From Miscanthus floridulus (taxonomy: Eukaryota > Streptophyta > Magnoliopsida > Poales > Poaceae), in assembly GCF_019320115.1 (NCBI RefSeq), contig NC_089584.1, forward strand, positions 78,001,260 to 78,065,259: a stretch of 64,000 bases of DNA, written 5' to 3'. The translations under genes were made by a program, and so were the position numbers. Shown in pieces: positions 347 to 21,549 of the stretch. Numbering within the stretch: position 1 is the first letter of the stretch; each line of letters opens with the position of its first letter. The notes below the pieces were generated by a model. It saw nothing but the letters and a program-made list of their open reading frames with translations, was not told the origin of the DNA and did not search any database.

Positions 347-792
347 ACGGCCATCAAAGCACTCATTTCCACATTGTCGCTCTAAACACATTCTCCACAG
401 CCTTGAACCAAGGCCTGGCCAGCTTCTTGAGTCCAATCAGCATATGTAGGAGCCACTCGGGGAATGGATGTAGCTGGTCCACCCACCAATTCATCTTCGA
501 AACTTTGTGCTATGTCCATAAGCACATCTAGAGTAGCAACTTGCATGGCTTCCCATGGGCTTTGCCCATTAGTCTCGGTGCTCCACCCATGCCACAACGG
601 TCTCATGGGGTTCAGTGGCACCACCAAGGTCACATTGTACCATGGCATAGCTCCAAATGGCACTGTCTGCACCCACGTGTAATAGGGCGCCTCCGGGTAC
701 CCAACTGAGCTTAGCACCCTCCAGAGCAAGGTAGGCGTACCAAACTAGTCCAAAAAGGTGCTGATACAAGGAGGAAACACAGGCGTGGCCAT
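347..792 (-). pseudogene. Accessory ORF0 of gypsy element B, dsRBD-like
   Basis: The ATG at 792 lies directly behind a pyrimidine tract ending in CAG, a good 3' splice site. The frame runs leftwards, with a TAG at codon 16 (745-747) and another TAG at 382-384, and is cut by the copia LTR at 346. It lies about 775 nt from B's LTR end, the same place where element A has its histone-tail ORF, but the protein is unrelated. The residues read as strand (YYTWVQTVP), strand (WYNVTLVVP), strand (LWHGWSTET), then a small-residue helix (SPWEAMQVATLDVLMDI). This is the order of a double-stranded-RNA-binding domain. The domain call is inference from pattern only; no catalytic motif is visible. It could equally be an uncharacterised grass transposon protein. 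Confidence 0.45.
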
Positions 793-1566
793 CTGTATCA
801 AAAGGGATGCAACCCTCATGAGAGGATTATTTTTCAAGGTAGGCATAAGTTATAAGGGAGGGAGTACTGCAATATGAATGACATGAGTGAATATGATGCA
901 TGCTCGTTCCGTACGTCCTCACAAACCTAAGAAAAGTTAAGTTCTAGCGGAATATACGGTGGCATATGCATGTTCTCTTGAATAGCGGTAACTAGTCGAT
1001 CTACACGGTGCGTTGTTAGTGTACCTACAGAAAATTTCATTGCAGCCCAACCTAACAAGATATAATGCTAACAATGAAAATAGTAAACTAAGATACTCTC
1101 CATATATACAACCCTGGATATATATACTTTGGTATCCAAACAACCCGACAAATATACCCACAATTAAGTACCTTCATATGTACATATATGCAACATGTAA
1201 ATATTCCAGTAACCACAACTAACTCTCTCCTAGACCGATAGTTGGACGGTCATGCTCTCACAACCCACACTTACCTTGGCGTAGAGGCAATTGATCCATA
1301 CATTACCATTCAAGCGAATGACACCCATGCAATAGCACGCCGCATGGACGATGAAATAGAAACAATCACTTTCCCCCCAAGTTAGTAATTATATATAAAA
1401 GTCCTTATGTGGGCTACAAGGGATGTGATCACCAGCATACTATAAAATTTCAGATTTGGAAACACCTATATATAACTATAAGTTGGAAAACCATTTTCAC
1501 AACAAAAGTTTTTGTTTTTAAATACCCTATGACATGTTTAGTGTTGAATCTAGCTCTGATGCCAAC
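793..1566 (-). other. 5' leader of element B with splice donor and PBS
   Basis: Untranslated leader between B's LTR and its ORF0. The primer-binding site is at 1553-1564 (minus TGGCATCAGAGC, close to the initiator-Met tRNA type). A consensus 5' splice site, AAG|GTAAGT, has its first intron base at 1274. The predicted intron is 1274-793 (482 nt). The bases around the donor (CTACGC before; GTGAGAGCATGACCGTCC after) recur in the leader of element A around 7545, so the donor is shared between the two families. Confidence 0.6.
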
Positions 1567-2738
1567 TGTCATAGAACCGTCTAATTTATAAGAGCACGAG
1601 TACAAAAACGATCACCGAAACAATCAAATTCTCGCACTTGAGCCCATATAAACCCGGTAGTCAACTGAAACCATGAAGGATTTCAAACCAACTTGCATAC
1701 AACCAAGATCACAGTAATTCAACATAACACATCACACGTTACAACATTTCACAAACAGTTTGTAGATAGATTACAACACATCAGAGTCATAGTTATTACA
1801 ACCAAGTCTTGTAAAGTAGCGGAAGCAAATAGTTTAACTCACACACATGAGTTCAAATACAAGTGCCGGCTTGCCGATCACACCCCACAAAAGCATTTGG
1901 ATAAGATAAACAGAGATCATGCCCGTGATCTAGTCTTCATCACCCACCGGGTGGAGACAATACTTACAGAAGCCCTAATAAAGAAGGTCATCTGCAACAA
2001 GAGGGAATAAACCCAGAGTACAAGAATGTACTCAGCTAGACTTATCCATCAGAAACCAAAACAATTGACACCAAGGATCATGCATAGCTTAATTTAGTGG
2101 ATCTAGCTGACACTTTCTTTTTGCGAAAAAGCATAAGTAGTAATGATCAACTCTTAACTTGAGCTAGCAGTGACTTTTAGCCATTAACCTATCATCTATA
2201 TTGGCACTTGTACTAAGCAATCACTTGATTAAGATGCAAACATTATTAACCATAGTAGGTATAAACTGTGGCAACATTATCATCATTCTCCATTTAACCA
2301 TATTGTTAAATTAAGTGAATCTACGTTGCCGCTGCTCAGTCAAGTTCTCACTATCTAGGAGAGACGATGATTTGAATCGATTCCTATCCAGTTGGAGGGG
2401 TATTCCTAACACAAACCCTACTTCCCCTGTCATGGTCGCAAACAAGTCACCTTTGGTATAATTCAGGAGTCACGGGTACGATCAGTGCCGCAAAACCAGA
2501 GAACCACTCTGCCATGAGTGTTCGGTGACTTAACCCGCCCTTGGGCTTACGCCAATAGTTCTCCGCACATCCTTACTGCCATCCAGATTGCGACCAACTA
2601 TTTGTGACCCTAGCCTGAATCAAGCTACTAGGCTTTGCGGTCAGAATGACTTATCCGGCTAGCTAAGTGTTAAGCTACGTTCAACATGACATGAGGATGT
2701 ACAGCGTATCAGTCCTTAAACGACACAGACGGAGTCAC
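1567..2738 (-). repeat. Element B 5' LTR, distal part
   Basis: On the minus strand this is the last quarter of an LTR ending ...GACA at 1567, followed by a primer-binding site. It is clearly related to 6100-7283 of element A in inverse orientation: both share the GCTGAGTAC / TGTACTC motif region and the CGGTGATCGTTTTTGTAC-type end. The other part of the same LTR lies at 17824-21342. Element A is inserted between them, and joining the halves at GTCAC restores a continuous LTR. Confidence 0.8.
2734..2738. repeat. Target site duplication GTCAC, left of element A
   Basis: GTCAC directly precedes the TGTAACACCC start of A's 5' LTR. The same five bases follow the CA end of its 3' LTR at 17819-17823. 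This fixes both element borders and shows a single intact insertion. Confidence 0.95.
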
Positions 2739-5700
2739 TGTAACACCCTAGGTGTTTGGCTTCTACTAATTGCATGTCATTTCATAAACATGTGCATTAT
2801 CCATGTCATCATGCCATTATCATTGAAACATTTCATTGCAACATTGGGTAAATTGCTTGTTTTGATTGTTTCATCACATGTGATCAATTGAAATGGTATA
2901 ACAATTTTGTAAAATGGTTGATCATGGTCTATTACACCTTAACTACACTTAGGTTACTTGTTTGGACATTGTTCATGTAGATCAAAATGACCAAAATGCC
3001 CTTGATTGCATGTTTGACTTGAATTGACCCTAGGAGTGTCATAGTTTGACTATTTAAAAAGTCCAACTTGGAAGCTTTGCATGGCTGTACACTCTTTACA
3101 AAAGTTGTAGCTAATTTAGCAAGGAACAAAAGTTGTTTTATGGTCAACTCATGAAAAGGTCTAGAACATGGTCAAACATGGCCCACAAGTCAGAAGTACA
3201 TGCTGATTTCATATTCAGCAAATTTTTCTAAGTCCTAAAGTGTAGTACAGTTTCGTGTACACATGTTTGGAGCCATGTATCTCCCTAACCGAGCCAAACC
3301 AGCTTGAGCTCCAGTGGAAAGAGTTGTAGTTAACGTGTAGATGAGCAACTTTGTTAACTATGGCATGGTCTAGATCACCACGGATTAGGAGTTGATGATC
3401 GTCGAATATGTGCTGTCAGTCATCGTCGATAAACACTGAATCGCGTTTGTTTTCAGAAAACGGTCAGTCGCCGTGGCCGACCGGCTCAGAGGCTCGACGT
3501 CGCATGTCCGCCACTCATCGCCGGACTCCTGCTCGCGCTGGCCATGCGCCGGGCGCATCCTGGCGTCGCAGCCACGCCTTGAAGCCACCTCGCGCCTGTC
3601 CGAACGCACTCGCCTTTCCCATTTCGCATTCCTCGCCTTCCACCGTGCGCTGCAAGAGAGCACCGCCGTCCGCCATTGCTCCGCCTTGGCCCCGCTCGCT
3701 CACCACCGCGAAAGCGCATCACCCTGTTCATCAGCAGCTGCGCCGTGACCTACTCCAACTCCTCCACCTCACAGCTACGTCATTTAGGCTTGGGTAAGGT
3801 CGCTGTGACCTTTCTGACACCGCTGCGCCATGGCCGCACCGGTGACCTCACTGTGGTCAGCACGGCACCGTTCCCATCCTCCATTCTTAGCTCGCGTTTA
3901 GCATTCTTCATCACGAGTAGCTGCTTGGGTGTAAATGCCATCACCAGTGCCGGTCCAGCCGCACCGGGACACGGCCGAGCGCCGCCGTGCGCCATGGCCG
4001 ATTCGCCGTGCGCCGCGGCCGGAGCGCTTAGGGACCACTAGAGCTTCGGCTTGGTAGGGAAATCAACGCGTGGGGGCTAGGGAAGCACGCCGGTGCTATT
4101 CGTTTCGCCGGGAGGGTTCGCCGTCGGCGAGTTCCCTCGTCGCCGCGCCGGCGGAACCGTCTCCCCTGTCTTCGTCTCGCTGACGGGTGGGGTCAGCTGA
4201 CGCTCGGGCCCCGCACGTCAGTCGCCAAGCTCAGGCGGGATCCGGCTTGGGCTGAGCCGCGTCTTGGGCCGCGCCAGCGTTGTTCGCGGGCCGCTGTTCC
4301 TTCGGGCCGGCCCAACTGTGGCTGAGTTTTGTTTCCTTATTTATTTTGTTTTATTATTTCACAGATTTGTATTGATATTCAAAAATTTGTATTTCTTAGT
4401 ATATAGATCCAAATGCCATGGTTCTAATTTTGTTGAGTTCCTAGTATTGTCTAGTATTTAACAAAAATAGTATATGAGCACATGTTTTAGAAAAATAGGG
4501 TGAATTAAATAGGAGTTTGAAATGTGTTTTTAGAAGCACGCAAACTTGTTTGAATTTTATCTTGAGTTTCTGTGGCCCAAAAATTATGAAATTTTGTGGA
4601 TCCTCTATTTTGGTTTAGTAGAGTCTCTGGTTAAAATTTTAGAGCTAGTGCATGTGTAGTTTTTAAGTTATAGAATTTCCTTTTATTAATGGGTGGATCT
4701 TGTGTGAATTTTCATAATTTTTCTATAGATCCAGTAAAGGTAAAATTTGGTGGGTACTATTCTTATGCTAGAATGATGCTAGGAAAAATGTGAAATCTAT
4801 TTCTTGACACTTTTCATTAGGATTTCTTAATTATGCCATTTTAAGCCAGTATGCCTTATCATTTTTGTGTAGACTGTTATACTTACTCAATGGCTTTGAA
4901 ATTTTTATGATGGTCTATGTGCAGCATGAGATAGCTACTGTAATTTTTGTAGATTTTTATAAATAGTTTTACTATATATTGCTTTAATCACCTAATTAAC
5001 TAGATAAATTAGAAAAGGGTATTAAATAATTTATCTAGAAGTTGACACTATACTTTCTGATGTTTATTAGGTATGCAAAACAAGTTGGTAAACTTGGTTT
5101 GATCAAAGTATGCTTTTGCACAATCATTAAATAATTAAGTTAGTAACCCCGTCATTCTGGACAGATTCTAGGTTTGCTGGAAATTGATTTAGTTAACATA
5201 AGAATCATGCTTTGATGTTTACAAATGTTTTGTAGAGAATTTCATAAGCTTTCCAGAATGTCCTCATGCAAGTCATTTGGAATTGTAGAACTTTAGTTGT
5301 GATTTAATTAAGGGACTACTTGTATGCATATGAAACTTAAATGTTAAATTATGTATACCTTTATTATTTCTAAGTTGTGGTAATGTTCCTAGGTGTTAGG
5401 CCTTTAACTGAAGATGAGCATCTTTATCTTAGGTTATGCAAGTTAGGTAAGTTGATCTTGTCTTTAAGTTAAGTAGATACATGCTTAAAGTGATTTGAAT
5501 AGAGCCAATTACTCGGTAAACGAGTGTCCAGTGATACTTTCGTAAACACTCACTGTGATTCATTCATCATGAGCATCATGTCATTCCTTATGCATCCATG
5601 ATATTTATATTTTGCATCGGCATGCAATAGGTGTACTGGAAGGAGTAACCCTGCTGGAATTCGAGGAACTGAGCGAGCAGCAGCAGCCGACACCGGAGAT

Positions 5701-7283
5701 TCAGGAGGAGCAGCCTTCAGGAGAAGTGCCAGACGAGGTCGCCGTTGAGTGCTCGGATCACCGTCCTTGCAACTTTGTGAAAGGCAAGCCCCGGAGCATA
5801 TTAAGCCTCCTAATTTCCGAAATGCAGTACAGTATTATTGTTACATATATATATTGTTGCATTAAGTTTAGGTGTTGGATGCAAACACTTGCTGCATTGG
5901 TTACCCAATTCCTTGTCCAGATATTGTTACCCTAAATCCTATGTAGCTCAGGCTCGAGTAGTGCTTAGCCCTGCTTAAACGCGGTAGAAGTCGGGTGATT
6001 TCCTGTCACCTGTGAGATATAGGAATATATATGTGGCACGGTTGGCTATATTTGCTATCGTGGAAAAGAACCAGTCTTAATTTGAAATGAAGACCGGACG
6101 GAGGCTTGCCGGTTTGCAGTGACTCCGTCTGCGTCGCTTAAGGACTGATTCTTGGAGCCTTTCCTGTTCATGTTGAACGCATGCCTCTCTCTTAGTTGGC
6201 TAGGTCTAGAGACCGACCGCGAAGCCGAGTAGCTCAACTCAGGCCGAGAGTCGATAAGTATAAAGTACGCCTCGGAAGGGAGCCGTAGGCGTGAGTCCAA
6301 GGGCAGGTGATTTAAAAGTCCTGATCGTCCTGGCAGAAGGGTAATCCCTAAGAGCGCTGGCGCTGATCGAACCCGCGAATTTGGTTCCTGAGTTGTACCA
6401 AAGGTAACCCACGGCTACCCTTGCTAAGTATGCCAGGGTGAGAGTTAGGAATACCCCCTCAGCTGAGTTGTAATTCGATTCGAATCGCCGTCTCTCCCGG
6501 TTAGTGAGAACTTGACGGGCTTATCTCCAATGTAGATACACTTAATAACATAATGGTTCGGAAATGATGATATGATGATGACAGCCTTATTATACCTGCT
6601 ATGGTTAATATTGTTTGCTCCTAATAAGTGAGTGCTCTAGTACAGGTGCTAATCTAGTGGACAGGTAAATAATGATAAGCTTGATGCTAATTTTAAATTG
6701 GTTACTATAATCTTAAGCTCTTTTATGCAACTGTGTCAAGCTAGCCCACCTGAAAAGCCTTGCATGATCCTTGGTGTCTTTATTTCTGTTTTTGTCGGAT
6801 AAGTCTAGCTGAGTACCTTCTTGTACTCAGGGTTTATCTCCCACCTGTTGCAGATGACCAGTTCTACTTTGGTTGCTACAAGTACTGCCTTCTCCCAGCA
6901 GGGATGAAGACTGGACCGTTGGGCGCGGTCTCTACTAGTTCTCGTACCTGATAATGCTTTTGTGGGACATGACTCAGACTTGGCAATGTATTTGAAAACC
7001 TTGATGTTTTGTACTAAACTATGTTGCTTCCGCACACTCAAACTTGGTTTGTAATATTCTAATTCAACTCTGATGGATGTAATCCGAATGCTACTTGTGA
7101 AATGTTGTAACAGATGATGTGTTGTGTTGAATCATTACGATCTTGGTTTGTATATCGAGAGTTGGTTGAAATCCTTCGTGATTTCTGGACTACCGGGATT
7201 ATGGGAGCTTAAGTATAGGAATTTGATCGCTTCGGTGATTGTTTTTGTACTTATGTTCTTATGATTTTGTCGGTTCTGTTACA
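2739..7283 (+). repeat. Element A 5' LTR
   Basis: Starts TGTAACACCCTAGG and ends TCTGTTACA before the primer site. It is 4545 bp, long for a plant gypsy LTR. The base composition is uneven: 3470-4330 is very GC-rich, with several overlapping ORFs of low credibility, while 4330-5600 is AT-rich. The 156 bp around 4075-4235 are missing from the 3' LTR. A conserved small ORF lies at 5612-5935. Confidence 0.95.
5612..5935 (+). other. Conserved small ORF inside the LTR (5' copy)
   Basis: A reading frame of about 107 codons within the LTR. Its first 65 codons (GVTLLEF, an acidic Gln/Glu-rich stretch, then DHRP, KGKP, SILSL) recur in the LTR of the different element B at 18078-18326 with an in-frame 12-nt length difference. 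In A the frame lacks an ATG (it opens at TTG), and the conserved part starts right after ATGCAATAG, which could be a 3' splice site. It may therefore be an exon rather than a free ORF. I do not recognise the peptide. It may have no function. Confidence 0.35.
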
Positions 7284-7285
7284 GC

Positions 7286-7297
7286 TGGCATCAGAGC
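7286..7297 (+). other. Primer-binding site of element A
   Basis: TGGCATCAGAGC starts two bases after the LTR end. It matches the common initiator-Met tRNA primer site TGGTATCAGAGC with one mismatch, as in element B. Confidence 0.85.
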
Positions 7298-7544
7298 AAG
7301 ATTTGACACTAAACACATCATTTGTGTATTTAAAACAAAAGTATTTGTGAAAATCCTAAATTAAATACTAAGTATTGCCAGTGGTCATATCCCTTATGCC
7401 CAAATAAGGACTCTTAGGTGGCTTATTAAAGTACTAACTTGGGGGTTCCTGCTTGTTTCTGTTTCGTCGTCCATACGGCGTGCTATTGTATGGATGCCAT
7501 CCGCTTGGGTGGTAATGTATGGATCAAAATACCTCTACGCTCTG

Positions 7545-8037
7545 GTAAGTGTGAGTTGTGAGAGCATGACCGTCCAACCGTCGGTCTAGGGGAGAGTAGT
7601 TGTGGTTGCTCGCATACTTACATGTTTAATCATGTATCTATGAGAGTACTTAATTATGGGTATCTCTAACGGGTAGCTGTGATACTAGAGTATATGCATC
7701 AGGGAATGTATGTATGAAAGTATTTAGTTTACTGCTTGTTTTCTATGCTTTTTGGGAAATTATTGGGCTGAAATGAAATTTTCTACAGGTACACTAACAA
7801 CATATCGTTATAGATCGACTAGCTACCGTCTACGAGAGAACGTATGTATGCCACCGTATATTTTGCTAGCCTTTAAATTTTCTAGGTTTGTGAGGACGTA
7901 CGGATCGTGCATGCATCATGTTCAAGCATACATGGCATTTCTTGCATTACTCCCTCCTTTAAAAGTGATTGTCCCGACTAATTAAATCTCGTATCCCTTA
8001 AATGATTCTCCCCTTATGTTGTAACTTTTTGCTATAG
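7545..8037 (+). other. Predicted leader intron upstream of ORF0
   Basis: A consensus 5' splice site CTG|GTAAGT stands at 7544/7545, and a pyrimidine-rich 3' splice site, TTTTTGCTATAG, ends at 8037, directly before the ORF0 ATG. The predicted intron is 493 nt. The same donor could join 9032/9033, whose tract CCTTTTGCAG directly precedes the gag ATG (intron of 1488 nt, removing ORF0). The donor is conserved in element B. No transcript evidence is available here. Confidence 0.55.
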
Positions 8038-8619
8038 ATGGCGCGCACGAAACGCACTGCTCGCAAGTCCGCTGGAGGTAGGGCGCCTCGTCACCGTTTA
8101 GCTCCTCGTGAGCCCCGCCCTGAGCCTACTGAGGTGGAAAGGCTGAGGGTAGAGCTGGCTCAGGTGACTGCTGAAAGGACTGCAGTTCAGCAGCGTTTGG
8201 AGCAAGTCACGCAGGAACGGGATCAAGAGAACCTGGAGGTTCAGAGGTTGACAGTTGCTCACCGCAACTGTGAGCATATGTTGGTTCACATGCTGAACCA
8301 ACGGAATGAAGCCTGGCACGAGGAGAATGTGTTGAGAGCAAGGCAGATTGAGCTAGAGCAGCAGTTGGCGACTGCAGAAGAGTACAATGACAATCTCCAT
8401 GAGGAGGTTCACCTACTGCACAATCAACTTCACCCTATCCTGCCACCTGATGAGGATGAGATGGGTTCTGGTGTCATCATGGCTGAAGGTGATGATGACA
8501 TGGAAGTCAATGGACCTAAGGACGCTCCACCTGATGAGGAGGAAGATGAGGAGTTAGAGCCTCCTAGTGATGAAGATGGAGGAGAGATCCTCGACACTGA
8601 CTCCGAGGATGATGCGTAG
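8038..8619 (+). CDS. ORF0: histone H3-tail mimic, coiled coil, acidic tail
   Basis: An intact 193-codon ORF between the leader and gag. After the initiator Met it reads ARTKRTARKSAGGRAPR, aligning without gaps to the H3 tail and matching about 17 of the first 26 positions. R2, T3, K4, T6, R8, K9, S10, G12, G13 and R17 are kept; H3 positions K14, K18, K23 and K27 are R, H, R and P. Residues 32 to about 135 form a Leu/Gln/Glu-rich coiled coil. Residues 138-193 are strongly acidic (DEEEDEELEPPSDEDGG). There is no histone fold, so it is not a histone gene. Inference: a substrate or bait for H3K4/H3K9 readers or writers, with a multimerising stem and a chaperone-like acidic end. It has no nonsense codon although gag-pol next door has six. 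The ATG follows a 3' splice site. I do not know a name for it. Confidence 0.85.
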   Translation: MARTKRTARKSAGGRAPRHRLAPREPRPEPTEVERLRVELAQVTAERTAVQQRLEQVTQERDQENLEVQRLTVAHRNCEHMLVHMLNQRNEAWHEENVLRARQIELEQQLATAEEYNDNLHEEVHLLHNQLHPILPPDEDEMGSGVIMAEGDDDMEVNGPKDAPPDEEEDEELEPPSDEDGGEILDTDSEDDA

Positions 8620-9032
8620 TTTAGCTTACTACTGAGCTAATGCGCTAGATCTAGTCTTTTGTTGATCCTCATGCATGAACGAGTAACTTTGTAGCAAGTT
8701 AATCGTTGGGATGTAATATCGAACCCTATGTTACCTTTGATGTAAGTTGGAACCACTATGGCTTGGATGTAACCTATCAAATGTATTATGCTCCACGTAT
8801 GTGAGCATTTGATGAATTTCGCCTTTGCGGTCTATGGATCTCGTTGTTGGTTAAGTTCATCGCATTTATATGTCAATTGATGCGCTTGATGAGTTGGGTG
8901 ATTGTGATGAATGATTGTGCCTCTATTGATTATTAAATGCATTCCCTCTAATGGACTCAGTTTGGCATAATTATACAGTTCATCTACAAAAATTTCCACA
9001 TCGTCAGTGCTCATTGGCTATACCTTTTGCAG
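8620..9032 (+). other. Spacer between ORF0 and gag, with splice acceptor
   Basis: 413 nt without a credible ORF. It ends in a pyrimidine-rich tract and CAG at 9032, directly before the gag ATG. This would allow gag-pol to be made from an RNA in which ORF0 is spliced out. Nothing else is recognised in it. Confidence 0.5.
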
Positions 9033-12000
9033 ATGGCTCATAACCTTCGTCGCGGTCGTGGCATGGGAAATGAGGAACAACCACCTCCACCACCACCCAC
9101 ACCAGCTGAGCTAATGCAGATAGTTGTGGAAAGTCAGCGCATGCTAGCTGAGGCTATGCGCCAGATGGCTAACCGTGAGGATCGGCATGTCCGCCAGGGA
9201 CCTGAGCCGAACCAGTATAGCAGCTTTAAGGACTTCATGGACACAAAGCCTCCTATCTTTTGTGAGGCAGAAGAACCCTTACAAGCGGATGAATGGTTGA
9301 GCACGATAGAGCAAAGATTTGGATTGCTCCGTTTGACTGAAGGCATGAAGGCTACGTATGCAGGACACCAGCTCCAAGGCCCTGTAGGCATCTGGTGGAC
9401 CCATCACAGGACCACCTTCCCTGCTAACGTTGAGATCATTTGGAACCAGTTCCAGGCAGCCTTCAGGGGACACTTTATCCCTCCTGGTCTCATGGCCATT
9501 AAGCATACTGAGTTTATGAAGCTCACCCAAGGCAATAAGAGTCTCAATGAGTACCTCTAGGCATTCAACAACCTGGCAAGATATGCTCCTGAGTTCGTCG
9601 ATACTGACGCCAAGAGAATAGCTAGCTTCAAGAGGGGACTTTCCCCAAAACTGATGAAGTCAATGGGCAACTGCAAGTGTGTCACCTTCAATGAGTTTAT
9701 CAGTGACACTCTGACTCAGGAGAACAATGACAAGATATATGCTGCTTCCAAGAACCATAAAAGGAACTTTGAGGCTGGTGCTTCCCAGTCCAAGGCTCCA
9801 ATGGTATCTAAGGCCCCGTACCGTCCACCCAATGCTAATGTCCGGTATCGCCCACCTCAGAAGAAGAACCAAGCTAAAACCAGTTTCCGCAAGGGGTATA
9901 CGATTTCCTTGCCGAAGAATACATCTGGGCAGAGTAGCTCCAATGTTCCACCAGCAAACAGGCCGTACTGGAACTGTAACCAGCCTGGTCATTGGGCAAA
10001 TAGATGTCCCCATCCTCCCAAGAATGCTCAAGGAAACGTCCGTCAGGGGCGTGTTTACTATACTACAGTGGAGGAAATTCCTGCTGGTGAAGTGGTCACC
10101 GCTGGTAAGTTCCTTGTTAATGATCACCCTGCAGTTGTGCTCTTTGATTCTAGTGCTTCGCATTCCTTTGTGAGTTCTACTTTTGCATCTAAGCATCAGA
10201 TGAATGTGATTACAATTGTCAAGGGGGGTTATTGTATTAGTGCTGCTGGGAATAATATCATGACTAACCAAGTAGTTAAAGATGTAAAGATTGAGATCGG
10301 GGATCGAGAGTTCCTTGTGGATCTTGTAGTTCTACTGGGGGTAGGAATCGATGTAATCCTAGGAATGAAGTGGATGAGCGGGAATGGAGTGTTGATCGAT
10401 ACATCAACCCGTGTGGTTATGTTGAGGGATCCTGTGGATAAGAAAGGTTTTCTAGTACAGTTACCTCGTGATATTGCTATCCACAGTACAGCCAATGCTA
10501 CCTTAGCCAAAGCCATTAAGGATCTACCGGTTGTCTGTGAGTTTCTAGATGTCTTTCCTGATGACTTGCCTGGATTACCTCCGGACCGTGATGTAGAATT
10601 CAAGATAGAACTCATTCCGGGTACGGCTCCCATTTCTCGAAGGCCCTATAGAATGCCACCTAATGAGTTGGCTGAGCTGAAGAGTCAGTTGAATGAGCTA
10701 TTGAAGAAAGGGTTGATTCGGCCTAGTTCTTCTCCTTGGGGTTGTCCGGCTATATTTGTGAAGAAGAAGGACGAGTCTCTACGCATGTGCGTGGATTATC
10801 GTCCCCTAAACGCTGTTACTATCAAGAACAAATACCCTCTTCCTCGCATCGATATTCTGTTTGATCAGCTCTCCAAGGCTAAGGTATTCTCCAAGATCGA
10901 TTTGAGGTCTGGCTACCATCAGATCAAAATTCGTCCAGAAGATATACCTAAGATAGCTTTCTCTACTCGTTATGGCTTGTTCGAATACCTCGTCATGTCA
11001 TTCAGGTTGACAAATGCTCCGGCACACTTTATGTACCTGATGAATTCTGTATTCATGCCGGAATTGGACAAATTTGTCGTCGTGTTCATTGATGATATCC
11101 TGGTATATTCTCAGAATGAAGAAGAGCATGCTGGACACCTGAGAATTGTTTTAACTCGGTTATGTGATAACCAGCTTTATGCCAAGTTCAGCAAGTGCAA
11201 GTTCTGGTTGAACAAGATACCTTTTCTTGGTCATGTATTATCTGGTGATGGAATTTCGGTTGACCCTACTAAGGTGCAAGAAGTCCTGGAGTGGAAGGCA
11301 CCTACTATGGTCATAGAAGTCCGAAGTTTTCTAGGTCTGGCTGGCTATTATCGTCGCTTTATCCTGGATTTCTCAAAGGTCGCCAAGCCCATGACTCGGC
11401 TACTGCAAAAGGATGAGAAGTTTGTGTGGACTCCAAAGTGTGAAGAGGCTTTCCACACTTTGTGGACCTTACTAACCTCTGCTCCTGTATTGGCACAACC
11501 TGACATTGAGAAGCCTTTTGATGTCTACTGTGGCGCATGTGGCACTGGTTTGGGGTGTGTTCTTATGTAGGAGAGTCGAGTAATTGCTTATGCTTCACGC
11601 CAGCTCCGAAAGCATGAAGTCAACTATCCTACCCATGACTTAGAGCTAGCCGCAGTTGTTCATGCCCTAAAGATCTAGAGACATTACTTGCTTGGTAATG
11701 TGTGCAACATCTATACTGACCATAAGAGTCTCAAGTACATCTTTACGCAGCCTGAGTTGAACATGCATCAACGACGATGGTTAGAATTGATCAAAGACTA
11801 CAACCTTCAAGTGCACTATCACCCTGGTAAGGCAAATGTGATTGCTGATGCCCTAAGCAGAAAGGCCCATTGCAATTCCTTAGTTAGTGAAGACTTTCAT
11901 CTGGCACACCTCCTTCATCCTGTAGTACTCCACAATATCACTGTGGATTGTTCTCTTAGAAGTCAAATTATCGAGCTCCAGAAGACGGATGTGGGTGTAT

Positions 12001-13442
12001 TTCACATCAAGCAGAAAATGAAAGAGAAAGAGACCAAGCACTTTAAAGTCGATGACAAGGGAATTCTCTGGTTTAATGATAGGCTTGTGGTACCCAAAGA
12101 TAAAGAACTTAGAAATCAAATTATAGATGAAGCCCATTCTTCAAAATTGTCCATCCATCCTGGTAGCAGTAAAATGTATCAAGATCTCAAGCTGTATTAT
12201 TGGTGGACCAAGATGAAGAAAGAAATCACAGCTTATGTGGCAAGGTGTGATAACTATTGCAGAGTCAAGGCTATTCACATAAGGCCCGGACTATTGCAGC
12301 CACTATCTATTCCTGGCTGGAAGTGGGAAGAAATTAGCATGGATTTTATTGTTGGATTACCCACTACCAAAAAGGGTTGTGATTCCATCTGGGTTATCGT
12401 AGATCGTCTAACTAAATCTGCTCACTTTATTCCGGTCAAGTCTACCTATCACCCTCACAATTATGCTGAGATTTATTTTCAACAAGTGGTACGTCTCCAT
12501 GGTGTACCCAAATCCATTGTTTCGGATAGAGGACCTCAGTTCATGGCTCGCTTTTGGGAGTGCTTACATCAGAATCTTGGCACTCATCCAATCCGTAGTT
12601 CTGCCTATCATCCGCAAACATCGGGACAGACTGAGCGTGTTAATCAAATTCTTGAAGACATGCTTAGAGCTTGTCTTATCTCTTGCAAAGGCTCTTGGGA
12701 AGACTGGTTACCTCTCGCTGAATTCTCTTATAACAACAGTTATCAAGAAAGTATCAAAATGGCTCCTTTTGAAGCTCTTTATGGCCGCAAGTGTAGAACT
12801 CCTTTGAACTAGGTGGAACCCGGAGAAAGAAGATTCTATGGTATTGATTTTGTAAAAGAAGCCGAAGAGCAAGTCCGAACTATACAGAAGAATATGACTG
12901 CCGCACAGGCTAGACAAAAGAGCTATGCTGACAAGAGAAGAAAACCTATTGAGTTTGAAGTAGGTGATCATGTTTATTTGAAGGTATCCCCTATGAAAGG
13001 AGTCAAGCGTTTTGAAATTAAAAGGAAACTTGAGCCTCGATATGTTGGACCCTACCGCATTATCGAGAAAAGTGGAAGAGTAGCATATAAGCTCGATCTA
13101 CCACGAGAGATGGGAGCTATATTCCCGGTATTCCATGTGTCCTAGCTTAAGAAGTGTCTTCGTATTCCTGAGGAGAGAATAGCAACAAGGAAAGTCAACT
13201 TGAAATCTGATCTTTCTTATGAAGAAAAGCCCGTGCAAGTCCTGGATACTCAAGAAAGAGTGACTCGTACATGAGTAGTTAAATTATACAAGGTAGTTTG
13301 GAGTAATCATAGTGAACGGGATGCAACCTGGGAGCGGGAAGATTATTTAAAGGAAAATCATCCAACTTTCTATACTAAATGGTACGCTTTCCAAATCTCG
13401 GGACAAGATTTTTCTAAGGGGGGGAGGGCTATAACACCCTAG
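9033..13442 (+). pseudogene. Element A gag-pol polyprotein, six nonsense codons
   Basis: One frame of 1470 codons encodes gag, zinc knuckle, protease, RT, RNase H, integrase and a chromodomain-like end (13225-13382). Stops are TAG 9558, 11568, 11676, 12810, 13143 and TGA 13272. RT keeps VDYRPLN and FIDDIL. The integrase acidic triad is present (MDFIVG, SDRGPQF, GQTERVN), but the second Cys of its zinc finger is displaced. Further lesions are visible: the knuckle's first Cys is Tyr (YWNC), the protease DSG is DSS (near 10147), and the RNase H Asp after DVYC is Gly. The frame runs through the polypurine tract and stops inside the 3' LTR at 13440-13442. The ATG at 9033 is preferred over the upstream TTG because it sits at a splice acceptor. 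Confidence 0.92.
13416..13429 (+). other. Polypurine tract of element A
   Basis: A purine run (AAGGGGGGGAGGG then C) ends directly before the 3' LTR at 13430. It is the plus-strand primer for reverse transcription. It overlaps the last codons of the gag-pol frame. Confidence 0.9.
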
Positions 13443-16400
13443 GTGTTTGGCTTCTACTAATTGCATGTCATTTCATAAACATGTGCATTATCCATGTCAT
13501 CATGCCATTATCATTGAAACATTTCATTGCAACATTGGGTAAATTGCTTGTTTTGATTGTTTCATCACATGTGATCAATTGAAATGGTATAACAATTTTG
13601 TAAAATGGTTGATCATGGTCTATTACACCTTAACTACACTTAGGTTACTTGTTTGGACATTGTTCATGTAGATCAAAATGACCAAAATGCCCTTGATTGC
13701 ATGTTTGACTTGAATTGACCCTAGGAGTGTCATAGTTTGACTATTTAAAAAGTCCAACTTGGAAGCTTTGCATGGCTGTACACTCTTTACAAAAGTTGTA
13801 GCTAATTTAGCAAGGAACAAAAGTTGTTTTATGGTCAACTCATGAAAAGGTCTAGAACATGGTCAAACATGGCCCACAAGTCAGAAGTACATGCTGATTT
13901 CATATTCAGCAAATTTTTCTAAGTCCTAAAGTGTAGTACAGTTTCGTGTACACATGTTTGGAGCCATGTATCTCCCTAACCGAGCCAAACCAGCTTGAGC
14001 TCCAGTGGAAAGAGTTGTAGTTAACGTGTAGATGAGCAACTTTGTTAACTACGGCATGGTCTAGATCACCACGGATTAGGAGTTGATGATCGTCGAATAT
14101 GTGCTGTCAGTCATCGTCGATAAACACTGAATCGCGTTTGTTTTCAGAAAACGGTCAGTCGCCGTGGCCGACCGGCTCAGAGGCTCGACGTCGCATGTCC
14201 GCCACTCATCGCCGGACTCCTGCTCGCGCTGGCCACGCGCCGGGCGCATCCTGGCGTCGCAGCCGCGCCTTGAAGCCACCTCGCGCCTGTCCGAACGCAC
14301 TCGCCTTTCCCATTTCGCATTCCTCGCCTTCCACCGTGCGCTGCAAGAGAGCGCCGCCGTCCGCCATTGCTCCGCCTTCGCCCCGCTCGCTCACCACCAC
14401 GAAAGCGCGTCGCCCTGTTCGTCAGCAGCTGCGTCGTGACCTACTCCACCTCCTCCACCTCATAGCTGCGTCATTTAGGCTTGGGTAAGGTCGCTGTGAC
14501 CTTTCTGACACCGCTGCGCCATGGCCGCACCGGTGACCTCACCGTGGTCAGCATGGCACCGTTCCCATCCTCCATTCTTAGCTCGCGTTTAGCATTCTTC
14601 ATCACGAGTAGCTGCTTGGGTGTAAATGCCATCACCAGTGCTGGTCCAGCCGCACCGGGACACGGCCGAGCGCCGCCGTGCGCCATGGCCGATTCGCCGT
14701 GCGCCGCGGTCGGAGCGCTTAGGGACCACTAGAGCTTTGGCTTGGTAGGGAAATCAACACGTGGGGGCTGGGGATCCGGCTTGGGCTGAGCCGCGTCTTG
14801 GGCCGCGCCAGCGTTGTTCGCGGGCCGCTGTTCCTTCGGGCCGGCCCAACTGTGGCTGAGTTTTGTTTCCTTATTTATTTTGTTTTATTATTTCATAGAT
14901 TTGTATTGATATTCAAAAATTTGTATTTCTTAGTATATAGATCCAAATGCCATGGTTCTAATTTTGTTGAGTTCCTAGTATTGTCTAGTATTTAACAAAA
15001 ATAGTATATGAGCACATGTTTTAGAAAAATAGGGTGAATTAAATAGGAGTTTGAAATGTGTTTTTAGAAGCATGCAAACTTGTTTGAATTTTATCTTGAG
15101 TTTCTGTGGCCCAAAAATTATGAAATTTTGTGGATCCTCTATTTTGGTTTAGTAGAGTCTCTGGTTAAAATTTTAGAGCTAGTGCATGTGTAGTTTTTAA
15201 GTTATAGAATTTCCTTTTATTAATGGGTGGATCTTGTGTGAATTTTCATAATTTTTCTATAGATCCAGTAAAGGTAAAATTTGGTGGGTACTATTCTTAT
15301 GCTAGAATGATGCTAGGAAAAATGTGAAATCTGTTGCTTGACACTTTTCATTAGGATTTCTTAATTATGCCATTTTAAGCCAGTATGCCTTATCATTTTT
15401 GTGTAGACTGTTATACTTACTCAATGGCTTTGAAATTTCTATGATGGTCTATGTGCAGCATGAGATAGCTACTGTAATTTTTGTAGATTTTTATAAATAG
15501 TTTTACTATATATTGCTTTAATCACCTAATTAACTAGATAAATTAGAAAAGGGTATTAAATAATTTATCTAGAAGTTGACACTATACTTTCTGATGTTTA
15601 TTAGGTATGCAAAACAAGTTGGTAAACTTGGTTTGATCAAAGTATGCTTTTGCACAATCATTAAATAATTAAGTTAGTAACCCCGTCATTCTGGACAGAT
15701 TCTAGGTTTGTTGGAAATTGATTTAGTTAACATAAGAATCATGCTTTGATGTTTACAAATGTTTTGTAGAGAATTTCATAAGCTTTCCAGAATGTCCTCA
15801 TGCAAGTCATTTGGAATTGTAGAACTTTAGTTGTGATTTAATTAAGGGACTACTTGTATGCATATGAAACTTAAATGTTAAATTATGTATACCTTTATTA
15901 TTTCTAAGTTGTGGTAATGTTCCTAGGTGTTAGGCCTTTAACTGAAGATGAGCATCTTTATCTTAGGTTATGCAAGTTAGGTAAGTTGATCTTGTCTTTA
16001 AGTTAAGTAGATACATGCTTAAAGTGATTTGAATAGAGCCAATTACTCGGTAAACGAGTGTCCAGTGATACTTTCGTAAACACTCACTGTGATTCATTCA
16101 TCATGAGCATCATGTCATTCCTTATGCATCCATGATATTTATATTTTGCATCGGCATGCAATAGGTGTACCGGAAGGAGTAACCCTGCTGGAATTCGAGG
16201 AACTGAGCGAGCAGCAGCAGCCGACACCGGAGATTCAGGAGGAGCAGCCTTCAGGAGAAGTGCTAGACGAGGTCGCCGTTGAGTGCCCGGATCACCGTCC
16301 TTGCAACTTTGTGAAAGGCAAGCCCCGGAGCATATTAAGCCTCCTAATTTCCAAAATGCAGTACAGTATTATTGTTACATATATATATTGTTGCATTAAG

Positions 16401-17818
16401 TTTAGGTGTTGGATGCAAACACTTGCTGCATTGGTTACCCAATTCCTTGTCCAGATATTGTTACCCTAAATCCTATGTAGCTCAGGCTCGAGTAGTGCTT
16501 AGCCCTGCTTAAACGCGGTAGAAGTCGGGTGATTTCCTGTCACCTACGAGATATAGGAATATACATGTGGCACGGTTGGCTATATTTGCTATCGTGGAAA
16601 AGAACCAGTCTTAATTTGAAATGAAGACCGGACGGAGGCTTGCCGGTTTGCAGTGACTCCGTCTGCGTCGCTTAAGGACTGATTCTTGGAGCCTTTCCTG
16701 TTCATGTTGAACGCATGCCTCTCTCTTAGTTGGCCGGGTCTGGAGACCGACCACGAAGCCGAGTAGCTCAACTCAGGCCGGGAGTCGATAAGTATAAAGT
16801 ATGCCTTGGAAGGGAGCCGTAGGCGTGAGTCCAAGGGCAGGTGATTTAAAAGTCCTGATCGTCCTGGTAGAAGGGTAATCCCTAAGAGCGCTGGCGCTGA
16901 TCGAACCCGCGAATTTGGTTCCTGAGTTGTACCAAAGGTAACCCACGGCTACCCTTGCTAAGTATGCCAGGGTGAGAGTTAGGAATACCCCCTCAGCTGA
17001 GTTGTAATTCGATTCGAATCGCCGTCTCTCCCGGTTAGTGAGAACTTGACGGGCTTATCTCCAATGTAGATACACTTAATAACATAATGGTTCGGAAATG
17101 ATGATATGATGATGACAGCCTTATTATACCTGCTATGGTTAATATTGTTTGCTCCTAATAAGTGAGTGCTCTAGTACAGGTGCTAATCTAGTGGACAGGT
17201 AAATAATGATAAGCTTGATGCTAATTTTAAATTGGTTACTATAATCTTAAGCTCTTTTATGCAACTGTGTCAAGCTAGCCCACCTGAAAAGCCTTGCATG
17301 ATCCTTGGTGTCTTTATTTCTGTTTTTGTCGGATAAGTCTAGCTGAGTACCTTCTCGTACTCAGGGTTTATCTCCCACCTGTTGCAGATGACCAGTTCTA
17401 CTTTGGTTGCTGCAAGTACTACCTTCTCCCAGCTAGGGATGAAGACTAGACCGTTGGGCGCGGTCTCTACTAGTTCTCGTACCTGATAATGCTTTTGTGG
17501 GACATGACTCAAACTTGGCAATGTATTTGAAAACCTTGATGTTTTATACTAAACTATGTTGCTTCCGCACACTCAAACTTGGTTTGTAATATTCTAATTC
17601 AACTCTGATGGATGTAATCCGAATGCTACTTGTGAAATGTTGTAACAGATGATGTGTTGTGTTGAATCATTACGATCTTGGTTTGTATGTCGAGAGTTGG
17701 TTGAAATCCTTCGTGATTTCTGGACTACCGAGATTATGGGAGCTTAAGTACAGGAATTTGATCGCTTCGGTGATTGTTTTTGTACTTACGTTCTTATGAT
17801 TTGGTCGGTTCTGTTACA
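13430..17818 (+). repeat. Element A 3' LTR
   Basis: 4389 bp, nearly identical to 2739-7283. It starts TATAACACCC instead of TGTAACACCC, a G-to-A change in the terminal TG, and lacks 156 bp present in the 5' LTR around 4075-4235. It ends TCTGTTACA before GTCAC. Confidence 0.95.
16146..16469 (+). other. Conserved small ORF inside the LTR (3' copy)
   Basis: Same frame as 5612-5935 with a few substitutions (Leu to Pro, Pro to Leu, Ser to Pro, Glu to Lys) and no stop. See the 5' copy for the conserved core shared with element B. Confidence 0.3.
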
Positions 17819-17823
17819 GTCAC
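17819..17823. repeat. Target site duplication GTCAC, right of element A
   Basis: Exact copy of 2734-2738. Downstream, the inverse LTR of element B resumes without a gap. Confidence 0.95.
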
Positions 17824-20800
17824 TATGTCCAAACCTACACAAAACTCCACCCGGTCTTAATTCATTATTAATATGGTTCTTTTTCACGATAGCAAATATA
17901 GCCAACCGTGACCCACCTCATCTTAAAGCTCGCAGGTGACAGGAAATCACCCGACTTCTACCGCACTAAGCATGGCTAAGCATTTAACCTGTTCCTAAAC
18001 TTAATTAGGATTCAAGTGCGATATCTGGATAAGGATAGATATATAATGCAATAATTGGTTCCAACCAATTCCTATACTTAATGCATCAACAACAATAAAG
18101 GATACTCAAGATATTTGTAGAAACATGGGAGACTTAGAATACTCTGGGGCTTGCCTTTTAGAAAAGATGATGGGCGGTGGTCAGGGCACTCGAGCAACTC
18201 CTCCTCAGCGGCTGCTTCGTTGATTACCTGAACCTCAGGCTCCTCCTCCAGGCTCACTTCCTTGAACTCCAGAAGCGTCACTCCCTCCGGCACACCTATT
18301 GCATGTATGCGCAAAATAAATATCATGGATGCACATGAACGAAGTTAGGGACGCTCGGGGAATGCACATGCTTACTGTAGTCCGCATATTCTATCTTAAG
18401 CTCTACTCAAATCACTTTAACTTACCAAGTTTATACAACCTAATGTATAATTGCTCATCTTCAGTTAAGGACCTAGTACCTGCACCTAAGCATGTTCTCA
18501 AGTTAGGATAGCACCTAAACAATCAACAAGAATATTGCGACAAAGCATACACACAAACATTCAGATTTCAGCAAAACATGGACTATACAGCGGTACAGTA
18601 AACTAATCATAACTAGAGATCTACAAATCAAAATAACAAGCAACAAGACAATTTGGAAAGCCTATGAAATTTCCTACAATTCATTTCCAGACCTCTGGCA
18701 TGGTTCCAACCTTTACCAGGTCGAATTTACATAACCACATAATCAGGTTCAAACAAGACAGAGAGCAAGCAAAACTGTGATTCAACTTTGAACGACTGTA
18801 ACTCCTAAACTACTAGGCCAAATGCCACCAAATTTTAACAGAAGCTAGATACATAAGTTATCTACAACTTTTGTATTCACCATTTTCTCAGAAAACCAAA
18901 TTATCATGGTGAACTTTGCAAAGTTCCCAGAACTATCCAGAAAGACATAATGCAAGAAAATAATTATTAACTTATGTGGCAAACAGATAAATGGACAAAA
19001 CCAACTTTACTAACTCATCACACATATCAGAATAACACCAGAAAGTAAAGTGTTCACCACCAATTCATTCCTTTTAACGCCTTTCTTAATTTATTTAATT
19101 ATTTAAGAGGAATAATAAACATATATGAAAACTATACCATTTAATCTGCAAAAATTATAGTAGGTACTACAGGCTCCAAGTAGGCCACTGTAAAAGTTTC
19201 ACATCATTTGAACAAGTATAACATCCTACATGAAAATGACTAGGCATAAAGGCTTAAAATAACATAAATAGGAAACCCTAGTGAAAATTGTCAAGAAATA
19301 GATTTTATATTTTTCTTAGCATCCTTGAGGTACTAGGACAACCTCCAATAAATTTCATGGTCATTGGATTCATAGATTAATTATTAAAATTCACACAAGG
19401 ATCATCTAATAATAAAAGGAAAATCTATAACTCAAAAACCATTCATGCACTGACTCTAAAATGTTTACCGGAGCTTCTACTCATCAAGAAGAGATCACCA
19501 TCCCAATTTCATAATTTTTGGAGCAAAGGAACTCTAGATATGAATTAAACAATTTTGCATCCATTTAAAAACACATTTTAAGTTTCAATTTAATTCTTCT
19601 AGAAACTCTACAACAAGTGCTAATATTATATTTTTCCTAAATACTACACTTCACCAAGATCCTAACAAAATTGGAACCACCCAATTTGGATCTACAAAAC
19701 TAGAGATATAAATTTTACAAAACAGTATTCAAATCTGAAATATTTGAACTATCTTTCTAAGTCTAAGTCACTAACAACCAGGGCCCGCTTGTCAGCGAAA
19801 CAAAAATAGAGCACGGCGCGGGACGGGGCTAGCTCGCCGACGGTGGCTTCTTCGGTGACAAGGAGGGTACCTCCGTGTTCACCTTGACCTCTCGCACCGA
19901 TTGACCTCCTAAACCTAAACCCTACCGACCTTTAGGTGCGTCGGCCATGGCGCATGGCGGCGCTCCGACGAACCCCGGCGCTAGATGCCCAGACAAGGCG
20001 CGCATCAGCTTCCTGGGACCACGGTGGACCTTCCTATGCTACTGCTACCAGCTGCGGTGAAATGGTTGAGCATGGCCACGTGAGGTCACCGGCAGCGGCC
20101 ATGGCGCGGCGGTGCTCGGCCGTGTTCCGGCTTGGCTGGACCGGCATTGTTGGTAGCATCATCACCGGAGCATCTACACATGATGTGGAATACGAGACGA
20201 GAGCTAGGGAAGGAGGAGAGGTCCTGTGCTGTGCTAGCCACGATGGACCGCGAGCGCGGTGGCGCTCCGGTGAGCTTTCGTCGGGGCAGAGTCAGCAATG
20301 CGGCTCACCTAAGGCTTAGCTGGCTCAGCGAGAACATCACCGAGGTCCATGAGGTGCTAGCGGAGCTGTGGTTGGAATGTCATTGGCTATGGTGCAGCGG
20401 TGAGCTCGCACGAGCTTAGCAGAGCCAATAGTGATGGCGGTGGTCTGTTGCGGCTGTTGCGGATGCAAAGGGAGGAGCAGGAAATGGAAATGGAACGCTG
20501 GGGAAAAACATGGGCGGACGCTGGGGGCTATGATGGCGCACAGCAGCCCGATGTGGCCTAAGCGGTTAGGATGCCGATGACGATCGGCGCCACATGGCAC
20601 TGAAACTTTGAAACTAGGCAGGTACTATAGCTTCGATTCAGTTAAGACATCAGGGCCTGATAGCACAAGTTGATGATGATAAAACTCCTAATCCATTGAT
20701 CATTAGCGAAAACAATCTAAACCAAAGTTGTACACCTACATACCAGCTACAATTTCTATTAAAGGATCATGACCTAATTCTCATTGGTTAAGGAGTAAAA

Positions 20801-21342: not shown

Positions 21343-21549
21343 GCAGTCAACAGAAGAAAATCCCCAATGTGGTGAGGAACCAAGACATAATGCTAACGCA
21401 GTTCCTGAGCCACAAGAGGAAGTCTTGGAGAAAACAAATCGTGGAGAAAATACCATAGTAATGGCTGTACAGTAGTAATTACTGAGCCATAATGGAGAAG
21501 TCGGTGAATATTCAGTGAGCCATATCACATTGTGGAGATAAATGGGCGA

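What the first reader, a model, noticed from the sequence alone, without database searches (positions are those of the whole stretch)
8038..8619. Retrotransposon ORF that opens with a copy of the histone H3 tail
Seen: directly after the start Met the protein reads ARTKRTARKSAGGRAPR, aligned without gaps to H3, with about 17 of 26 positions identical. K4, K9, R2, R8, R17, T3 and S10 remain; K14, K18, K23 and K27 are R, H, R, P. Known: H3K4 and H3K9 are methylated and read by PHD and chromo-type domains, and many readers need the free N-terminal Ala, which this placement would provide after Met removal. Inference: the protein is a methylatable but poorly acetylatable H3 decoy, multimerised by its coiled coil, with a histone-chaperone-like acidic tail. 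It could bind or saturate host silencing enzymes (KYP/SUVH, CMT3, K4 readers) or guide the element to chromatin. I cannot tell whether it has been described.
Basis: partly seen in the sequence, partly recalled or inferred. Interest (0 to 1): 0.95.

Follow-up and report, generated by a model that had tools for sequence, protein, structure and literature searches.

The report
Retrotransposon protein starting like histone H3
A common jumping gene in a grass genome makes a small extra protein whose first two dozen amino acids resemble the tail of histone H3, which suggests, but does not prove, that it acts on the chromatin machinery that silences such elements.

Summary
ORF0 (8038-8619) opens with an ungapped H3 tail: 15/18, 17/24, 18/27 identities counting Met; no shuffle of 10^6 reaches it; the PDB hits shown are H3-family chains (E 2.9e-4; family profile 6.6e-6). 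It is not confined to this copy: 39 of 40 copies ranked by leader DNA carry it. In 62 intact copies K4 and K9 are kept, 14 is R and 18 is H. ORF0 lies between leader and gag of a young, high-copy Ty3/gypsy element. It has a disordered tail, one 100-residue helix and an acidic end. A conserved donor (7545) and acceptors touching the ORF0 and gag ATGs imply spliced mRNAs. ORF0 as a whole is under purifying selection; for the tail alone the evidence is mixed. The match stops near the end of the first coding exon of host intron-bearing H3 genes; capture is unproven. Best reading: a spliced, multivalent H3-tail mimic that keeps K9 but lacks K18, so it could occupy H3K9 writers and readers without activating CMT3. 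No binding was tested.

The parts
2734..2738 (.). Target-site duplication GTCAC, left
   Evidence: Read from flanks printed; same 5 bases at 17819-17823
2739..7283 (+). 5' LTR, TGTAACACCC...TTCTGTTACA
   Evidence: blastn within the window, 98.4-98.9% identity to the 3' LTR, 53 mismatches in 4395 columns; ends read
7286..7297 (+). Primer-binding-site-like TGGCATCAGAGC (initiator-Met tRNA type; motif recalled)
   Evidence: Sequence
7545..7550 (+). 5' splice-donor-like GTAAGT in the leader
   Evidence: GTAAGT kept in 60 of 61 readable copies (62 examined, window included); AAG|GTAAGT at the aligned place of the diverged neighbour element
8035..8037 (+). 3' splice-acceptor-like YAG touching the ORF0 ATG (TAG here, CAG in most copies)
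   Evidence: YAG in 73 of 73 copies (70 CAG, 3 TAG) and in 40 of 40 leader-ranked copies (the two sets overlap)
8038..8109 (+). H3-tail-like residues 1-24 of ORF0
8038..8619 (+). ORF0 / 5' additional ORF, 193 aa
   Evidence: homologues
8131..8430 (+). Single long helix (residues 32-131), presumed coiled coil
   Evidence: AlphaFold2 model; no PDB fold match
8431..8616 (+). Disordered acidic C-terminal tail
   Evidence: sequence
9030..9032 (+). 3' splice-acceptor-like CAG touching the gag ATG
   Evidence: present in all 21 of 30 loci in which the script located the gag ATG (the other 9 were not oriented and not looked at)
9033..9557 (+). gag, first open stretch (frame broken further on)
   Evidence: Pfam Retrotrans_gag 4.5e-11; six stops in the gag frame between 9033 and 13427
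9654..11567 (+). Protease, reverse transcriptase, start of RNase H
   Evidence: Pfam RVP_2 5.3e-31, RVT_1 6.9e-30, RT_RNaseH_2 9.7e-12
11688..12809 (+). RNase H end and integrase
   Evidence: Pfam Integrase_H2C2 6.9e-17; rve 1.6e-06 and RT_RNaseH 3.3e-05, both below their cut-offs
13275..13424 (+). Chromodomain-like end of pol
   Evidence: Pfam Chromo E 0.0016, 18.8 bits, below the 25.1 cut-off
13430..17818 (+). 3' LTR
17819..17823 (.). Target-site duplication GTCAC, right
385..792 (-). Remnant of a different ORF0 in the same slot of the neighbouring related element
   Evidence: Leader 77.6% identical to 7371-7964, then an unrelated frame after ...ACAG|ATG

Best explanation
ORF0 is the accessory (5' additional ORF) protein of a young, abundant Ty3/gypsy element of the Tekay/Retrosat2 kind, and it works as a histone H3 tail mimic. 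Shown here: the tail match, its presence across the family, the helix-plus-acidic-end model, the conserved donor and acceptors, and purifying selection on the ORF as a whole. Inferred: alternative splicing from the leader donor (7545) to the acceptor touching the ORF0 ATG yields a protein starting exactly M-A-R-T-K; Met removal exposes Ala1; the long helix multimerises the tail; the multivalent tail is bound, and perhaps methylated at K9, by host proteins that read or write H3 1-17 (KYP/SUVH4-6, CMT3/ZMET2, SHH1, ADCP1-like readers). Because position 18 is never K (H in most) and 22 mostly P, a K9-methylated ORF0 would be expected to occupy CMT3 without the H3K18 contact that activates it, weakening the H3K9me2-CHG methylation loop that silences the element. 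Confidence refers to 'H3-tail mimic that engages host H3-tail-binding proteins'. I put the specific CMT3 antagonism at about 0.2.
For: Tail match far above chance, placed directly at the N-terminus. 36 of 142 fetched homologues carry the tail motif at the N-terminus, and a pattern scan found none of the 142 that extends 25 or more residues upstream of the helix without it. K4 and K9 are 62/62 in intact genome copies and 39/39 in leader-ranked copies that cover the tail, of 40. P0073, a tail-bearing homologue, has only 75-80% matches among the 150 scored in this genome, so the tail probably also occurs in a lineage from elsewhere. Non-basic H3 residues (A1 33/33, A7 32/33, S10 32/33, G13 33/33, P16 32/33, L20 33/33) are kept along with basic ones, more than a plain basic signal needs. 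ORF0 shared-variant pN/pS 0.15, like gag at 0.13; outside CpG transitions the tail has 2 of 121 N against 7 of 54 S (ratio 0.13, p 0.004). Splice-site architecture conserved. PMC9256654 (passages): the K9me2 peptide 1-32 activates ZMET2/CMT3, the 1-17 peptide does not appreciably, K18 sits in an acidic pocket, R17, L20, T22 make contacts. PMC6318295 (passages): ADCP1 contacts R2, K4 and K9me2. PMC7617993 (passages): SHH1 reads K4me0/K9me, ZMP reads K4me0.
Against: No binding, methylation, expression or silencing data. The tail-specific selection signal comes from copies ranked by ORF0 similarity, which biases against amino-acid changes; in leader-ranked copies the tail is unresolved (5/121 N, 2/54 S), and shared non-CpG variants of the whole ORF give 0.55, p 0.19. 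Counting CpG changes too, the tail is less constrained than linker plus helix (shared pN/pS 0.40 vs 0.15, 62 copies), and among 33 relatives it is the least conserved segment (mean 0.872 vs 0.911-0.951 elsewhere). H3-matched sites do not differ from the helix in having any non-deamination change (5/16 vs 45/99, p 0.42); only changes shared by two or more sequences differ (0/16 vs 20/99, one-sided p 0.037). Lysine codons are immune to C-to-T sense changes. In 24 of 33 relatives an in-frame upstream ATG would extend the protein and bury Ala1 unless the RNA is spliced. All splicing is inferred from DNA.
Confidence: 0.5

Rival explanations
1. The tail is a basic nuclear-import signal. H3's own tail carries an import signal (recalled); a copy of it would bring ORF0, and perhaps Gag or RNA bound to its helix, into the nucleus without any reader being bound.
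For: Strongly basic, disordered N-terminus; PMC11728184 (passages) reports predicted nuclear localisation for 5' additional ORFs of other Tekay elements although it found no amino-acid similarity between the sunflower one and those of grasses; losing acetylatable lysines would not harm an import signal.
Against: An import signal needs neither the exact N-terminus nor the H3 register; non-basic H3 residues are kept as well.
Confidence: 0.25
2. The tail tethers the element to chromatin or to its own integrase: the H3-like K9 is a ligand for the integrase chromodomain or a local guide for the integration complex.
For: A chromodomain-like end of pol lies in the same element (weak); H3 tails are chromodomain ligands.
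Against: Chromo hit is below its cut-off and the frame is broken by a stop just before it; group II chromodomains of plant elements lack the aromatic cage (PMC12786077, passage).
Confidence: 0.1
3. The tail is a neutral relic of a captured H3 exon, and the functional part of ORF0 is the helix and acidic end.
For: Similarity stops near where the first coding exon of intron-bearing host H3 genes stops; in leader-ranked copies linker plus helix is constrained (ratio 0.32, p 8e-6) and the tail is not resolved; tail 0.40 against 0.15 when CpG changes are counted.
Against: Kept in relatives whose helix identity falls to 69% pairwise; non-CpG ratio 0.13 in the larger, ranked sample.
Confidence: 0.1
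4. The H3 likeness is convergent: a basic nucleic-acid-binding or RNA-chaperone tail that came to resemble H3.
For: Codon-level agreement with host H3 genes is not clearly beyond chance (P 0.04-0.23).
Against: 15/18 identity anchored at Met, 0 of 10^6 shuffles; position 14 arginine is AGG, one step from the lysine AAG found in 12 of 13 host H3 exons read, while the other arginines of residues 2-24 are CGN.
Confidence: 0.05

Closest known systems
ORF0 of Retrosat2, RIRE3, RIRE8, FRetro3 and the maize/sorghum homologues (PMC3485330, passages read)
   Same: Extra ORF between the leader and gag-pol of long-LTR Ty3/gypsy elements of grasses; similar LTR start (TGTCACACCC there, TGTAACACCC here); ORF0 evolves faster than the gag-pol ORF and has no established function.
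   Different: The word 'histone' does not occur in its main text, and it predicts enzyme-type functions from structure models. I could not align its ORF0 sequences, which were not at hand.
Tekay 5' additional ORFs of sunflower, maize and sorghum (PMC11728184, passages read)
   Same: Same slot, disordered stretches plus long helix, predicted nuclear.
   Different: Maize and sorghum proteins are described as weakly DRBM-like, sunflower as without similarity; 'histone' does not occur in the main text.
Histone mimics in other proteins (ATF7IP-MPP8, PMC6172828, listing only; influenza NS1, SARS-CoV-2 ORF8, G9a, recalled)
   Same: H3-like motif used to engage chromatin proteins.
   Different: As recalled, those are short motifs away from the N-terminus; here about 22 residues sit at the N-terminus in H3 register on a helical carrier, in a transposable element.
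Anti-silencing accessory proteins of mobile elements (VANDAL-encoded, mentioned in PMC11728184; orchid AlkB-type demethylase ORF, PMC12786077 passage and PMC9289625 listing)
   Same: Additional ORF proposed or shown to counter host control.
   Different: Act by sequence-specific protection or RNA demethylation, not by copying a histone tail.

Membership tests
Ty3/gypsy LTR retrotransposon | Domain order protease-RT-RNase H-integrase between LTRs, target-site duplication | tested here: met
   Pfam hits in order (integrase core below its cut-off, zinc-binding part above); LTRs 98.4-98.9% identical; GTCAC on both sides
Chromovirus, Tekay/Del lineage | Chromodomain at the integrase C-terminus | tested here: inconclusive
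   Chromo E 0.0016, below Pfam cut-off, frame broken
Chromovirus, Tekay/Del lineage | Position in an RT phylogeny | not tested
   No named reference RTs at hand
Retrosat2/RIRE3/RIRE8 ORF0 group | Extra ORF between leader and gag in a long-LTR element | tested here: met
Retrosat2/RIRE3/RIRE8 ORF0 group | Sequence homology to their ORF0 proteins | not tested
Histone H3 | Histone fold after the tail | tested here: not met
   Similarity ends at residues 22-27; one 100-residue helix, no PDB fold match
Histone mimic | Histone-tail sequence in a non-histone protein, beyond chance | tested here: met
Histone mimic | Bound or modified by histone readers or writers | not testable with these tools
   Needs biochemistry
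DRBM-like 5' additional ORF | Alpha-beta DRBM fold | tested here: not met
   ORF0 model has no strands; for the neighbour's ORF0 remnant the model is too poor to tell (mean pLDDT 51.9)

The most novel reading that the evidence does not exclude
A retrotransposon took the first coding exon of a host replacement-H3 gene, joined it to a multimerising helix, and selection replaced K14, K18 and K23 while keeping A1 to K9. The protein is thus a K9-methylatable, non-activating ligand that competes with chromatin for KYP, CMT3/ZMET2 and SHH1 and so breaks the H3K9me2-CHG methylation loop in trans. It is made only when the element's leader is spliced to the ORF0 acceptor instead of the gag acceptor.
Probability: 0.17. 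Interest if true: 0.95.

Novelty: new variant of a known kind. Interest (0 to 1): 0.84.

Why it matters
Accessory ORFs of plant LTR retrotransposons are widespread and mostly without known function. A family-wide H3 tail, with K9 kept and K18 lost, turns 'what does ORF0 do' into a defined binding experiment. If the mimicry is real, it would be a transposon protein acting directly on the H3K9-DNA methylation loop that silences transposons. It would also give a natural H3 variant tail that separates CMT3 binding from CMT3 activation.

Tried and rejected
Looked for relatives in phage records, viral contigs and prokaryote genomes: none confirmed, as expected for a plant element. Foldseek of the ORF0 model against PDB: no match. 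Pfam on ORF0: only two weak hits below cut-off. The idea that some homologues are more H3-like and therefore ancestral (T11 and Q19) was dropped: both states can arise by C-to-T/G-to-A decay from A and R. DNA descent from host H3 genes: 47 of 69 nt and 9 of 16 shared-residue codons identical to the nearest intron-bearing H3 exon, with a 15-nt exact run, but P = 0.04, 0.20 or 0.23 depending on the codon null, so capture stays a hypothesis. The neighbour's ORF0 remnant has no Pfam hit and no useful PDB match, and its model is poor; a genome search with it did not complete. Genome searches with other diverged homologues (P0062, P0018) did not complete. The one further extra-ORF paper that I asked for by DOI is not held, and older RIRE3/RIRE8 papers (recalled) were not found. 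So the claim that the H3 likeness is undescribed rests on titles and abstract starts of the papers listed (each shows only the top of its hits) and on 'histone' not occurring in the main texts of PMC3485330, PMC11728184 and PMC7264820.

Full report
What was checked. ORF0 runs from 8038 to 8619 on the + strand. Its first residues align to histone H3 from the initiator Met without a gap: 15 of 18, 17 of 24 and 18 of 27 identical counting Met, or 17 of 26 for residues 2-27. Shuffling those residues a million times never reached 17 (best 13), and of 346 Met starts tested in the window no other exceeds 7 matches over residues 2-24, against 16 here. A search of solved-structure sequences gave 140 matches at E up to 10; the 60 shown are H3-family chains, best E 2.9e-4; the family profile gives 6.6e-6.

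The element. The ORF sits in an LTR retrotransposon with both LTRs, at 2739-7283 and 13430-17818, with 53 mismatches in 4395 aligned columns, about 0.47 million years at a recalled rate of 1.3e-8. The same five flanking bases GTCAC lie on both sides, and gag, protease, RT, RNase H and integrase domains follow in Ty3/gypsy order. A chromodomain-like end scores below Pfam's cut-off. The gag frame carries six stops between 9033 and 13427, while ORF0 is open. The element lies in a genome of 2.68 Gb whose contigs C1-C19 are 85-231 Mb long; size and number fit Miscanthus, which is recalled and not tested.

The family. A search of proteins from public genomes and metagenomes gave 221 homologues at E of 0.01 or less among 377 candidates, 120 listed. 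Of 142 proteins fetched over three searches, 36 carry the tail motif at the N-terminus; a pattern scan found none that extends 25 or more residues upstream of the helix without it; most of the others start downstream of the tail. In 33 relatives chosen because they reach the N-terminus, Ala1 is 33/33, K4 32/33, K9 32/33, position 14 R 33/33, position 18 H 31/33 and otherwise R or D. In the window's own genome the first look found 12,075 candidates; only the best 150 were scored, and all 150 align from residue 1. Of 80 fetched loci, 62 were open and distinct, 11 broken and 7 duplicates. In the 62, K4 and K9 are 62/62, position 14 is R and 18 is H in 62/62, Ala1 in 61. Because those copies were ranked by protein similarity, I also took the 40 copies ranked by leader DNA (40 scored of 2769 candidates): 39 cover the tail, with K4, K9, R14 and H18 in 39/39 and Ala1 in 37; 25 have no in-frame stop in a projection that ignores indels. 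The fortieth (L094) loses ORF0 right after its start.

Selection. Most tail changes are C-to-T or G-to-A decay: at H3-matched sites, 42 of 47 differing cells in the 33 relatives are of that type. Counting variants in genome copies, ORF0 shared-variant pN/pS was 0.15 (28 N, 54 S; 47 copies) and that of the gag start in 44 of the same loci 0.13 (56 N, 125 S). With 62 copies and all changes counted it was 0.20 for ORF0, 0.40 for the tail and 0.15 for linker plus helix. Relative to the window copy and outside CpG transitions, the 62 copies give tail 0.13 (2/121 N, 7/54 S; p 0.004), linker plus helix 0.13 (23/658, 52/187) and acidic end 0.40 (36/413, 19/87). Against this, the leader-ranked set gives, outside CpG, 0.45 for the whole ORF (57/1192, 35/328, p 2e-4), 0.32 for linker plus helix (p 8e-6), but about 1.0 for the acidic end and 1.1 for the tail (5/121, 2/54), with too few changes to tell; its shared variants alone give 0.55, p 0.19. 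Without correction for decay the tail is the least conserved segment in the relatives (0.872). So ORF0 is a selected protein, and tail constraint is likely but not settled. K4 and K9 invariance is partly a codon effect, since AAA and AAG cannot be changed in sense by C-to-T decay.

Splice-site architecture. ORF0 and gag both start directly after a pyrimidine-rich YAG, as does the different ORF0 of the neighbouring element; 26 of 2796 ATGs in the window meet that rule (the rule was set after seeing the sites). YAG is kept before ORF0 in 73 of 73 copies and 40 of 40 leader-ranked copies (the sets overlap), and before gag in the 21 of 30 loci where it was located. A strong donor, GTAAGT at 7545, is kept in 60 of 61 readable copies and at the aligned place of the neighbour, whose leader is only 77.6% identical. 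Splicing 7545-8037 would remove 18 of the 23 ATGs between 7285 and ORF0, and in the 24 of 33 relatives with an in-frame upstream Met it would be needed to expose Ala1. This is inferred from DNA; no RNA was examined.

Build. AlphaFold2 with 34 sequences gives a disordered tail, one helix from 32 to 131 at high confidence, and a disordered acidic end; no PDB fold match. There is no histone fold, so it is not a histone. Multimerisation by the helix is inferred.

Origin. The genome holds intronless H3 genes and intron-bearing ones; in seven rows the first matching piece ends at residue 25 or 26 of the query, while two other split matches break at 30 and 32. In the seven fetched, codon 24 (AAG) is followed by GT, and in three a TGCAG touches the ATG. 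The ORF0 match ends at about the same place. The nearest such exon shares 47 of 69 bases after ATG, 9 of 16 codons for shared residues and a 15-base exact run, but synonymous-codon nulls give P 0.04, 0.20 and 0.23. Exon capture is therefore suggested, not shown.

How it may work. CMT3/ZMET2 needs H3K9me2 together with H3K18: the 1-32 peptide activates and the 1-17 peptide does not appreciably; K18 enters an acidic pocket, and R17, L20 and T22 make contacts (PMC9256654, passages). The window's ORF0 keeps 11 of residues 1-13 (all but 5 and 11), R17 and L20, but has H at 18 and P at 22. SHH1 reads K4me0/K9me, and KYP takes the unmodified K9 as substrate (PMC7617993, passages). A multivalent ORF0 could thus occupy these proteins without activating CMT3. 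Rivals are a plain import signal, a tether to integrase or chromatin, a neutral relic, and convergence.

Compared with what is known. ORF0 and 5' additional ORFs of Retrosat2/RIRE3/RIRE8/Tekay elements are a known kind without established function (PMC3485330, PMC11728184, passages). 'Histone' does not occur in their main texts, nor in that of PMC7264820, and among the papers listed by the searches I saw no H3-tail mimic in a transposable element; those lists show only top hits, and key older papers are not held. I therefore call it a new variant of a known kind.

The neighbour. The element appears to sit inside the LTR of a related element on the other strand (self-matches on both sides of it). 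That neighbour's leader continues into a different ORF0. The slot between leader and gag thus holds at least two unrelated frames in related elements, each behind the same kind of acceptor.

Noticed in passing
385-1564, minus strand: A related element with a 77.6% identical leader carries a different, broken ORF0 (begins M-A-T-P-V-F-P-P) in the same slot, behind the same type of acceptor: the ORF0 slot may be exchangeable.
   Followed up: partly
7545, 8035-8037, 9030-9032: Conserved splice donor and two acceptors touching the ORF0 and gag ATGs suggest a retrovirus-like choice between two spliced mRNAs.
   Followed up: partly
2739-17818 within about 1565-21343: The element seems nested inside the reversed LTR of the related neighbour (self-alignments on both sides).
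   Followed up: partly
53186-55021, minus strand: Long frames resembling an ABC-type transporter gene (by eye from the ORF list).
   Followed up: no
58508-59711, plus strand: Frames resembling a Harbinger-type transposase (by eye).
   Followed up: no
30636-31505, minus strand: A diverged reverse-transcriptase stretch, 27% identical to this element's pol.
   Followed up: no
L113-L118, L125: Host intron-bearing H3 genes: codon 24 is followed by GT, and in three of seven a TGCAG touches the ATG.
   Followed up: partly
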